Under the pieces are notes generated by a model, which was not told where the DNA came from, ran no database searches, and saw nothing but the letters and a program-made list of their open reading frames with translations. From a virus, in the IMG/VR virus record IMGVR_UViG_3300028274_000006, positions 1 to 64,000 of that record: DNA of 64,000 bases; one strand, written 5' to 3'. The translations under genes and the position numbers were made by a program. Within the stretch, counting starts at the first letter, position 1. Each line of letters starts with the position of its first letter. Shown here piece by piece: positions 27,393 through 34,791 of this stretch.

Positions 27393-28409
<1,017 letters not shown>

Positions 28410-33463: not shown

Positions 33464-33603
33464 CAGATAAAGATAGATGGTACATAAAAATGAAATTGAA
33501 GATAGCAGCACTAAGAGGAATGGCTAGAGGACTAAATAGCTCAGAGGAAAACCTTGATAGACTAGAAGAAAAACTAGAAGAAACTAAACCAGAAACAAGC
33601 TAA
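33460..33603 (+). CDS. Helical microprotein
   Basis: 47 residues, basic first half and acidic coiled-coil second half (SSEENLDRLEEKLEETK). Overlaps the previous stop. Last coding sequence before the structured non-coding region. Confidence 0.5.
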   Translation: MTDKDRWYIKMKLKIAALRGMARGLNSSEENLDRLEEKLEETKPETS

Positions 33604-33636
33604 GTAGACTTGTTGCAGATTAACATTGAGTGTTTT

Positions 33637-33719
33637 GTGCGGGATGCAGCTGGAGAAAGAGTGGTAGGACACTGCGCGAAAGCGAACCAGTAGGAGTGCA
33701 AATCTCAGTGCCGCACCAA
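33637..33719 (+). ncRNA. tRNA-like structure 1
   Basis: GTGCGG (33637-33642) pairs with CCGCAC (33711-33716) and the element ends in an encoded ACCA. Inside are a GCAG...CTGC D-stem with a GGTAG loop, a CGC-GAAA-GCG hairpin where an anticodon arm would be, and a GAG-TGCAAAT-CTC T-arm-like hairpin. No seven-base anticodon loop, so it is not a working tRNA by these rules. Confidence 0.4.
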
Positions 33720-33751
33720 GCACTTAATAGAACTTTAACATCGGATATTTT

Positions 33752-33876
33752 GTGGGTATGAGGAATAGGCTCAAACTCTAGTAGATATATTAGACGTTAA
33801 GGAGGACGCGAACCCAGCGGAGGATATAACGCAGATCGGACTGCGAGGGTAGTACAACGAATTGCCTCATACCTAC
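33752..33876 (+). ncRNA. Structured RNA element 2, 12-bp closing stem
   Basis: GTGGGTATGAGG (33752-33763) pairs with CCTCATACCTAC (33865-33876) over 12 bp with one G-U. Inside is CGCAG-ATCGGA-CTGCG (33830-33845) and other short stems. Not a tRNA. Confidence 0.45.
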
Positions 33877-33908
33877 TAAGTATCTGATTGCTCATTAACA
33901 GAAGATTG

Positions 33909-34090
33909 AGAGTGTGGATGGCGGAATAGGTAGACGCTAGTTTGGAGTTAGATTGTTTGTATCGTGTCTTAATGCTAGAACTTCAGCAGTCCAAACAATC
34001 ATGCAAGGTGACTATACGAGTCGGAAACCTACAGAAGTGATTCGTTCACGGTTAAACAGATAATCTCGGCAAATCCTTGCTCCACACTCT
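33909..34090 (+). ncRNA. tRNA-Leu-derived structured RNA 3
   Basis: AGAGTGTGGA (33909-33918) pairs perfectly with TCCACACTCT (34081-34090). The 5' part TGGCGGAATAGGTAGACG is very close to the D-arm of bacterial tRNA-Leu, followed by CTAG-TTTGGAG-TTAG. Where the variable and T arms should be there are about 130 extra bases, including a perfect 9-bp stem (33951-33959 with 33992-34000). The 3' part lacks a normal T-arm. A hybrid of tRNA parts and an inserted RNA domain. Confidence 0.45.
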
Positions 34091-34442
34091 TAGTCTTTTG
34101 ACTAATTAACATAATACCGACTGGAGTTTAAACTGCTGAGGTCGGTTCACAGAAAAGGAAGCAGGCTTACAAGATTGATGAGTCTAGCAGCATCTAGAAT
34201 GGCGTCTTGCATAAGTAATTGTACGAAAGCGGGTAGATGTACCTTATAAAGATTGGAGGACTACCCCCCCAAGATTGAAAAACTATCTTGGTTGCTTTGA
34301 CCCGATTAGTAATGTGATCGGCTATGCAGAAGTAATCTTTAAACGGAGTACCTTAGATATTCTAGTGGCGTTTGCATTAACCTTTGGGTTAAACCATAAA
34401 CTATAAGGTAACAATTTAAATAGCATGAAGTAAAGCACGATG

Positions 34443-34451
34443 TGCTATAAT
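34443..34451 (+). promoter_or_regulatory. Extended -10 promoter
   Basis: TGCTATAAT with TATAAT at 34446-34451, preceded by AGCAC/GTGCT overlapping it. Same core as the promoters at 12592 and 36875. Would drive the 34540 operon and marks the end of the structured RNA region. Confidence 0.6.
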
Positions 34452-34457
34452 AACAAT

Positions 34458-34509
34458 ATTGCAACATAATACCGAGACGGAAGTTAAAAACCCATCCCTG
34501 GGTTGCAAT
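34458..34509 (+). promoter_or_regulatory. 5' leader hairpin
   Basis: ATTGCAAC and GTTGCAAT close a loop that contains AACCC...GGGTT, all within the leader of the 34540 gene. The stretch AACATAATACCGA at its start also occurs near 34108, inside the structured RNA region. Confidence 0.45.
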
Positions 34510-34539
34510 AAGTAATGTTTAGTAAAGAAAGGTAAAGTC

Positions 34540-34791
34540 ATGTCAAAAGACTTCCAACCAGCGACGTTAGAAAACGTCAACCATGAACAAATAGAGAGTG
34601 TTTTTAATACTCTTGTAGGTCAATCTATGGAGCTTATAGAAGCTATAGGATTGTCCGAAAAACAAGAAAAGGCTTTTAAGGCTCAATTAAAGCGACTAAT
34701 TTATACTTCATTAGATGATGTATTTAATATTGAGTTTGATGTTGATTCAACTAGTTATGCTGGAATTCACGACAATGTCAATAATAGCTAG
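34540..34791 (+). CDS. Small phage protein, unknown
   Basis: 83 residues, helical and acidic (ESVFNTLVGQSMELIEAIG, EKQEKAFKAQLKRLIY). RBS GAAAGG. First gene of an operon of small genes after the non-coding region. No family recognised. Confidence 0.65.
   Translation: MSKDFQPATLENVNHEQIESVFNTLVGQSMELIEAIGLSEKQEKAFKAQLKRLIYTSLDDVFNIEFDVDSTSYAGIHDNVNNS

What the first reader, a model, noticed from the sequence alone, without database searches (positions are those of the whole stretch)
33604..34460. Large ornate non-coding RNA region with tRNA-like parts
About 860 bases with no ORF hold at least nine strong stems, including three long closing helices (up to 12 bp), GNRA-type and other tight hairpins, and two segments built from tRNA pieces. 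Phage large RNAs such as GOLLD and ROOL have similar size, context and tRNA association, but I cannot match sequence motifs. It may be a new member or new class.
Basis: partly seen in the sequence, partly recalled or inferred. Interest (0 to 1): 0.75.

Follow-up and report, generated by a model that had tools for sequence, protein, structure and literature searches.

The report
Phage tRNA-mimic RNAs without an anticodon
This stretch of a virus of bacteria encodes RNAs folded like the upper half of a transfer RNA but without the part that reads codons, and one of them belongs to a family, not in the RNA database searched, that occurs in more than two hundred other phages and prophages.

Summary
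In detail: 33604-34460 has no convincing ORF, folds far better than shuffles (z -4.45), and holds three units closed by 17-, 24- and 20-nt helices. It is not GOLLD, ROOL, tRNA, tmRNA or any Rfam family. The third unit (U3, 33899-34100) is the key. It carries the tertiary core of tRNA-Leu (U8, A14, A15-U48, G18G19, C56, D arm GCGGAAUAGGUAGACGC, T arm), but a variable domain replaces the anticodon arm. Motif scans found this architecture widely. Class I (7-bp acceptor, T-loop UGCAAAU): 191 distinct sequences, mainly Bacillota phages and prophages; 182 have a paired acceptor. Class II, the window type (T-loop insertion ACUAUACGAG...CUCG, acceptor often extended to about 20 bp): 100 distinct sequences from viral contigs. 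Stem positions change in compensated pairs, and ARAGORN calls none as tRNA. The invariant residues are those that specify leucine charging in E. coli, so I propose an anticodon-less tRNA-Leu mimic that engages host tRNA-binding machinery and carries a fast-changing, partly pseudoknotted domain. The structured family is shown; the function is inferred. No description was found in the open-access library searched. U1 and U2 are tRNA-like but not shown to be members.

The parts
33899..34100 (+). U3: class II tRNA-like RNA, the core of the finding
   Evidence: 20-nt closing helix, z -4.2; architecture shared with 84 other class II sequences
33899..33918 (+). U3 closing helix, 5' strand; acceptor positions 1-7 are 33912-33918 (GTGTGGA)
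   Evidence: pairs with 34081-34100
33919..33937 (+). U8-G9 and D arm TGGCGGAATAGGTAGACGC
   Evidence: the same 19-mer in 39 of 85 class II members although it was not part of that search pattern; T8, A14 and A15 in 85/85
33938..34002 (+). Central domain in place of the anticodon arm, ending in CAT (T48 = 34002); stem P2 33951-33959/33992-34000
   Evidence: I9; a P2-type stem at this place is enriched in both classes
34003..34010 (+). T-stem 5' strand GCAAGG and T54-G55
   Evidence: sequence; T stem outer 4 pairs all formed in 95/100 class II sequences
34011..34069 (+). 59-nt T-loop insertion ACTATACGAG...CTCGG between positions 55 and 56
   Evidence: recurrent; found with a pattern that left the inside free, then scanned for directly
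34070..34080 (+). CAAAT (T-loop positions 56-60) and T-stem 3' strand CCTTGC
   Evidence: sequence; class I has TG-CAAAT contiguous
34081..34100 (+). U3 closing helix, 3' strand
33626..33727 (+). U1: tRNA-like unit, 17-nt closing helix, GAAA hairpin, GAG-TGCAAAT-CTC T-loop-like hairpin
   Evidence: sequence, z -2.75; no homologue found among fetched loci, so membership not established
33740..33888 (+). U2: tRNA-sized unit closed by a 24-nt helix; possible shortened D arm GAG-GAATAGG-CTC
   Evidence: I1, z -5.0; tRNA origin is by eye only
33889..33900 (+). TGCTCATTAACA, boxA-like sequence before U3; similar AGAACTTTAACA at 33729, TGCAGATTAACA at 33614, GACTAATTAACA at 34100
   Evidence: boxA-like words are enriched upstream of class II (9.4% against 1.2% of control windows), a lead only
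34106..34460 (+). Further weakly structured non-coding DNA
   Evidence: z about -2; no relative found

Best explanation
U3 is a member of a so far undescribed family of phage non-coding RNAs that fold like a type-II tRNA (tRNA-Leu elbow: acceptor/T stack of 7+6 bp, D arm, U8-A14, A15-U48, G19-C56, U54-A58) but have no anticodon arm. In its place sits a hypervariable domain with a stem just before position 48 and, in a share of members, an H-type pseudoknot. Class I has tRNA-like ends; class II (the window) has a T-loop insertion and often a closing helix of about 20 bp. Most likely mode of action: the constant part mimics tRNA-Leu to bind a host protein that recognises the tRNA elbow and not the anticodon (leucyl-tRNA synthetase, tRNA maturation enzymes, or a tRNA-targeting defence protein), while the variable domain carries the phage-specific activity. 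SHOWN: family, core structure, covariation, phage/prophage location, lack of an anticodon arm. INFERRED: transcription, tRNA-type processing of class I, protein target, biological role.
For: Class I: 191 distinct sequences fitting a D-arm + T-arm pattern, 182 with at least 6 of 7 acceptor pairs; acceptor 98% paired against 54% shuffled, compensated double changes at all 7 positions, constant T-arm length. Class II, scanned on the T arm alone: T stem fully paired in 95/100, D arm plus acceptor in 85, A15 in 85/85, T48 in 84/85, D-stem pair C11-G24 replaced by U11-A24 in 7; closing-helix positions 8-20 70% paired against 42% shuffled. The variable-domain stem is enriched (class I z 11; class II z 5.9); pseudoknot 55 observed against 17.8 expected in class I, 23 against 10.3 in class II. 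No ARAGORN call in either class; no Rfam match. Leucine identity in E. coli uses A73, A15-U48, G18G19, A20a and D/T-loop contacts, and tRNA-Leu lacking the anticodon arm stays active (PMC9976931): these are residues kept here. Class I 3' ends favour A73 (59% against 32% background) and U74/U75 (54%/47% against 27%), as expected for CCA-less tRNA precursors cut by RNase Z (recalled, not tested).
Against: No expression, processing or binding data. U55 is replaced by G55 and the acceptor/T stack is 13 bp, so ordinary elongation-factor use is doubtful. A73 is not universal. Class II helices of about 20 bp leave no tRNA-like end without further cutting. The D arm and T-loop of class I were fixed by the search pattern, so their invariance there is partly by construction; the acceptor filter slightly biases the acceptor percentages. 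In the phage itself only the U3/unit B pair supports U3 directly, and unit B's T-loop insertion (18 nt) lacks the ACUAUACGAG motif.
Confidence: 0.45

Rival explanations
1. A leader element in the nascent late transcript, which controls transcription (antitermination, as nut or put sites do) or RNA processing in cis, not a free RNA.
For: Class I lies next to late transcription activators: of 70 upstream neighbours 21 match phrog_36, 18 phrog_248 and 9 phrog_2198 (a protein may match more than one); downstream neighbours include HNH and terminase. BoxA-like words are enriched upstream of class II, and four TTAACA motifs precede or follow the window units.
Against: Many class I members lie in tRNA clusters of lytic phages. 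Class II shows no fixed gene context. BoxA-like sites are in a minority; class I shows little such enrichment. A tRNA-Leu core is not needed for antitermination.
Confidence: 0.2
2. tmRNA-like adaptor: the RNA is aminoacylated and enters the ribosome or another aminoacyl-transfer reaction.
For: tRNA-like half without anticodon, as in tmRNA (PMC3929946, abstract); leucine identity residues kept; pseudoknots in the insert.
Against: No Rfam tmRNA match, no ARAGORN tmRNA call in class II or the window; no conserved coding segment seen; 13-bp stack; no encoded CCA (1 of 182); class II ends are buried in a long helix.
Confidence: 0.12
3. Decoy or sponge against tRNA-targeting host defence or toxins, with the variable domain under an arms race.
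For: Constant tRNA elbow and hypervariable insert; lack of an anticodon would make it immune to anticodon nucleases; sole phage/prophage distribution.
Against: No association with defence or counter-defence genes was tested; purely inferential. Overlaps with the best explanation as one possible target.
Confidence: 0.15
4. Decayed or relic tRNA genes with no function.
For: Clear descent from tRNA-Leu; neighbours of real tRNAs in several phages.
Against: Compensated changes at every acceptor and T-stem position in hundreds of sequences; a recurrent T-loop insertion motif; constant spacing.
Confidence: 0.03
5. One large ornate RNA of the GOLLD/ROOL kind covering the whole 860 nt.
For: Size and structured nature; GOLLD and ROOL also lie in phages near tRNA islands (PMC12286853).
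Against: No Rfam match even at E up to 10. Unit B and the other class II loci carry the U3-type unit without U1 and U2.
Confidence: 0.05

Closest known systems
Bacterial tRNA-Leu (type II tRNA; Rfam RF00005)
   Same: D arm, U8-A14, A15-U48, G18G19, A20a, C56, U54-A58; residues that specify leucine charging (PMC9976931)
   Different: No anticodon arm; G55 instead of U55; T stem 6 bp; no ARAGORN or Rfam match in the members tested; T-loop insertion and long closing helix in class II
tmRNA (RF00023)
   Same: tRNA-like half with the anticodon arm replaced by a larger, pseudoknotted insert
   Different: D arm is tRNA-Leu-like; T-loop UGCAAAU; insert much smaller with no coding segment seen; no match to the tmRNA model
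Allo-tRNAs and 'irregular tRNA' polycistrons of soil metatranscriptomes (Mukai et al. 2017, as reviewed in PMC7609411)
   Same: Unusual tRNA-like RNAs in rows, some not chargeable by E. coli enzymes, proposed link to mobile elements
   Different: Allo-tRNAs have a 12-bp 8/4 or 9/3 acceptor domain and anticodons; here 7/6 and no anticodon arm. The irregular ones were not available for a sequence comparison, so overlap cannot be excluded
tRNA-Sec (RF01852)
   Same: 13-bp acceptor plus T stem (8/5 in bacteria, PMC7609411)
   Different: 7/6 split by position, tRNA-Leu D arm, no anticodon; no match to the model for the class I RNA tested (one search gives only a weak hit, 17.6 bits, on the neighbouring Lenus unit)
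GOLLD (RF02032) and ROOL (RF03087)
   Same: Large structured phage RNAs near tRNAs, function unknown
   Different: No sequence or covariance match; separate tRNA-like units instead of a cage-forming RNA

Membership tests
tRNA | Match to tRNA covariance model or ARAGORN | tested here: not met
   Window 0; 0 of 182 class I (tRNA mode) and 0 of 85 class II. At loosened ARAGORN thresholds U1-U3 give only weak, mutually inconsistent calls on both strands
tRNA | Anticodon arm with 7-nt loop between D and T arms | tested here: not met
   27-83 nt (class I) hypervariable inserts with the 3' stem just before position 48 and no common hairpin at the anticodon position. U3 alone has a possible 7-nt loop CTAG-TTTGGAG-TTAG
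tRNA | Elbow tertiary core (U8-A14, 15-48, G18G19, C56, U54-A58) | tested here: met
   class II scanned without the D arm: T8, A14, A15 85/85, T48 84/85
tmRNA | Match to tmRNA model | tested here: not met
   the only tmRNA match is an ordinary phage tmRNA gene in L029 next to, not on, the class I RNA
tmRNA | Coding segment for a tag peptide | tested here: inconclusive
   no coding pattern seen by eye in hypervariable inserts; not tested formally
GOLLD / ROOL | Match to RF02032 / RF03087 | tested here: not met
   for the window; 47 other loci at gathering
Allo-tRNA | 8/4 or 9/3 acceptor domain of 12 bp with an anticodon | tested here: not met
   7/6 in class I by position counts; definition from PMC7609411
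Leucine-accepting RNA | Charging with leucine in vitro | not testable with these tools
   identity residues present; A73 in 59% of class I
This family (class II) | D arm, paired acceptor, P2 before T48, T stem, T-loop insertion ACTATACGAG...CTCGK-CAAAT | tested here: met
   U3 33899-34100 fits all
This family | The same features in U1 and U2 | tested here: inconclusive
   long closing helices and T- or D-arm-like pieces by eye; no homologues

The most novel reading that the evidence does not exclude
Phages and prophages, in Bacillota and in many uncultivated hosts, make anticodon-less tRNA-Leu mimics with a constant tRNA elbow and a fast-evolving, pseudoknotted payload, used in trans to capture a host tRNA-handling enzyme or to blunt tRNA-directed defence: a new class of viral RNA.
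Probability: 0.35. Interest if true: 0.92.

Novelty: categorically new. Interest (0 to 1): 0.82.

Why it matters
Few structured RNA classes of phages are known, and the best known ones (GOLLD, ROOL) have no known function. Here a large, alignable family with a readable logic (constant tRNA elbow, variable payload, two architectural classes) was hidden in unannotated intergenic DNA, including in cultured Lactobacillus, Enterococcus, Weissella and Brochothrix phages where it can be tested now. If the tRNA mimicry is confirmed, it would give a concrete handle on how phages engage the host's tRNA machinery without decoding. Tools that find only canonical tRNAs miss all of them.

Tried and rejected
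GOLLD, ROOL, tmRNA, tRNA and every other Rfam family by cmscan at gathering and, on the region, at E up to 10. A direct DNA search of phages with the region gave only a 26-nt D-arm match to Lactobacillus phages, which turned out to be the entry point to the family. The unit B region as query gave nothing in phages. Protein-anchored searches for close relatives gave only the two phages of this record and one cousin, L005, whose corresponding region is not recognisably class II. Intron in the T-loop: removing the insertion would restore the class I T-loop exactly, but 15-71 nt is too short for a group I intron and no splicing evidence exists; left open. Pairing of D-loop AUAG with CUAU of the insertion: covariation was not consistent, dropped. 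BoxA: enriched but in a minority, kept as a lead only. Prevalence in a draw of 299 genomes of the phylum: only the query genome itself matched the exact pattern, so the exact pattern is rare per genome. Class II queries found no named phage. Full-text searches for a published description found none; subscription papers and preprints are not held.

Full report
OBSERVATION. The region 33604-34460 lies between a 47-aa ORF and an 83-aa ORF downstream of the lysis genes of a tailed phage. It has no ORF above 49 aa. It folds at z -4.45 against dinucleotide shuffles; U1, U2 and U3 fold at z -2.75, -5.0 and -4.2, coding controls near zero. Neither ARAGORN nor Rfam finds a known RNA in the window; on 33500-34600 up to E=10 Rfam gives one chance hit.

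THE RECORD. The window is part of a 74,772-base virus record made of two related phage genomes joined head to tail: unit A (window 1-37598) and unit B (37599-74772), about 73-78% identical in DNA over shared genes. Unit A alone is a 37,623-base contig in another sample, with 25 bases beyond the unit (L002), and unit B occurs in another contig (L010), so the join is probably an assembly artefact. Unit B carries, after the lysis genes, an RNA with the same tRNA-Leu-like D arm (AAAGAGAGG-TGGCGGAATAGGAACGC) and the T-arm half AAATCCTTGC-CCTCTCTTT (L006 10346-10453), z -3.1. Its closing helix has a wholly different sequence from that of U3 and is still paired: the first sign of a selected structure.

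THE FAMILY. A weak 26-nt match led to Lactobacillus phages Lenus and Satyr, where an unannotated unit lies between or near real tRNA genes. Its DNA finds 40 phage records, mostly Lactobacillus phages with a few from Enterococcus, Weissella, Brochothrix, Lacticaseibacillus and a Tenericutes phage, nearly all unannotated at that place; 17 more loci were read, and no Rfam match falls on the units themselves. The shared plan: 7-bp acceptor, UG, GCGGAAUAGGUAGACGC, a hypervariable insert, usually CAU, a 6-bp T stem with loop UGCAAAU, and the acceptor's 3' strand.

CLASS I SCANS. In all, 191 distinct sequences, 182 with at least 6 of 7 acceptor pairs. Every acceptor position shows four or more kinds of standard pair. 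On 147 non-redundant sequences 98.4% of acceptor cells pair, against 54% after shuffling and 31-41% after sliding; outer T-stem cells 98.6% against 75%. The acceptor set was filtered at 6 of 7, but the filter removed only 9 of 191. D arm and T-loop were part of the pattern, so their invariance is not evidence here.

CLASS II, THE WINDOW TYPE. In U3 the T-loop is split: GCAAGG-UG-[59 nt]-CAAAU-CCUUGC. A scan for such a split loop that left the insertion free found 59 stretches. 27 distinct hits had a tRNA-Leu-like D arm upstream and a paired acceptor, and in most the insertion begins with ACUAUAC; its end often pairs with that beginning, also through alternative sequences (CUCGG/CCGAG in L269, CUCU/AGAG in L245). 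A scan for GGTGACTATACGAG...CTCGKCAAATCC found 106 stretches and 100 distinct sequences: T stem fully paired in 95, D arm and acceptor in 85. As the D arm was not in this pattern, its conservation is independent evidence: T8, A14 and A15 in 85/85, T48 in 84/85, and D-stem pair C11-G24 replaced by U11-A24 in 7. The closing helix goes on beyond position 7: positions 8-20 are 70% paired against 42% shuffled, and 58% of members reach 16 bp or more against 12% in mismatched pairs.

THE CENTRAL DOMAIN. The insert replaces the anticodon arm. A stem whose 3' strand ends just before position 48 (P2) is strongly enriched (class I z 11; class II z 5.9); U3 has it as GAUUGUUUG/CAAACAAUC. An H-type pseudoknot between the segment after the D stem and the P2 loop is present in 55 of 147 class I inserts against 17.8 expected at equal thresholds, and in 23 of 85 class II against 10.3. 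It is therefore probably real in a share of members, not proven in each, and not certain for U3, where its strand would overlap P2.

CONTEXT. Of 70 class I upstream neighbours, 21 match phrog_36 (transcriptional regulator), 18 phrog_248 (transcriptional activator) and 9 phrog_2198 (Alt-like activator), with overlap between these sets; downstream come HNH and terminase genes among others. So in temperate phages it often stands at the head of the late genes. Class II has no fixed context. BoxA-like words are enriched before class II, and four TTAACA words lie at 33614, 33729, 33889 and 34100 (12-mer start positions).

MECHANISM. E. coli leucine identity rests on A73, A15-U48, G18G19, A20a and the D/T-loop contacts, and tRNA-Leu without its anticodon arm is still charged (PMC9976931). 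These are the residues kept here. Class I 3' flanks prefer A73, U74 and U75, which from recalled knowledge of RNase Z in Bacillus would suit CCA-less precursors. I therefore favour tRNA-Leu mimicry aimed at a host tRNA-binding protein, with the variable domain as effector; the target could be LeuRS, a maturation enzyme or a defence protein. Against use in translation stand the 13-bp acceptor/T stack (a feature of tRNA-Sec, PMC7609411), G55 and the missing anticodon. Class II, with its long helix, may act as a bound element without tRNA-type ends. Shown: structure, covariation, distribution. Inferred: transcription, processing, target, role.

COMPARISON AND NOVELTY. It works like no known family exactly; tmRNA is the nearest in logic, tRNA-Leu in sequence, and the 'irregular tRNA' polycistrons of soil metatranscriptomes (PMC7609411) the nearest description in print, which I could not compare in sequence. 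No Rfam family and no paper found describes it, within an open-access library. I call it categorically new with that reserve. U1 and U2 remain tRNA-like units of unknown kinship.

Noticed in passing
window 1-64000 and G000 64001-74772: The record is two related ~37-kb phage genomes joined head to tail (73-78% DNA identity over shared genes). Each occurs without the other in another sample, so the join at about 37598 is probably an assembly chimera.
   Followed up: partly
L013 1603-1684 (phage Lenus) and similar places in L015, L019, L021: A second unannotated tRNA-like unit beside the class I RNA, with a canonical T-loop (CTGG-TTCGACT-CCAG) and an odd anticodon region; weak tRNA-Sec match of 17.6 bits.
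   Followed up: partly
L163, L184, L189, L197, L217: Nearly identical class I RNAs in several environmental Listeria species; prophage or fixed chromosomal element not checked.
   Followed up: no
window 34108-34120 and 34463-34475: Exact 13-nt direct repeat AACATAATACCGA at the start of two further structured stretches.
   Followed up: no
L006 10180-10320: Very stable hairpin region ending in a T run (z -6.25) just before the unit B RNA, a likely terminator.
   Followed up: no
window 27402-28409: Collagen-like tail protein with many G-x-T-G-Y-T repeats.
   Followed up: no
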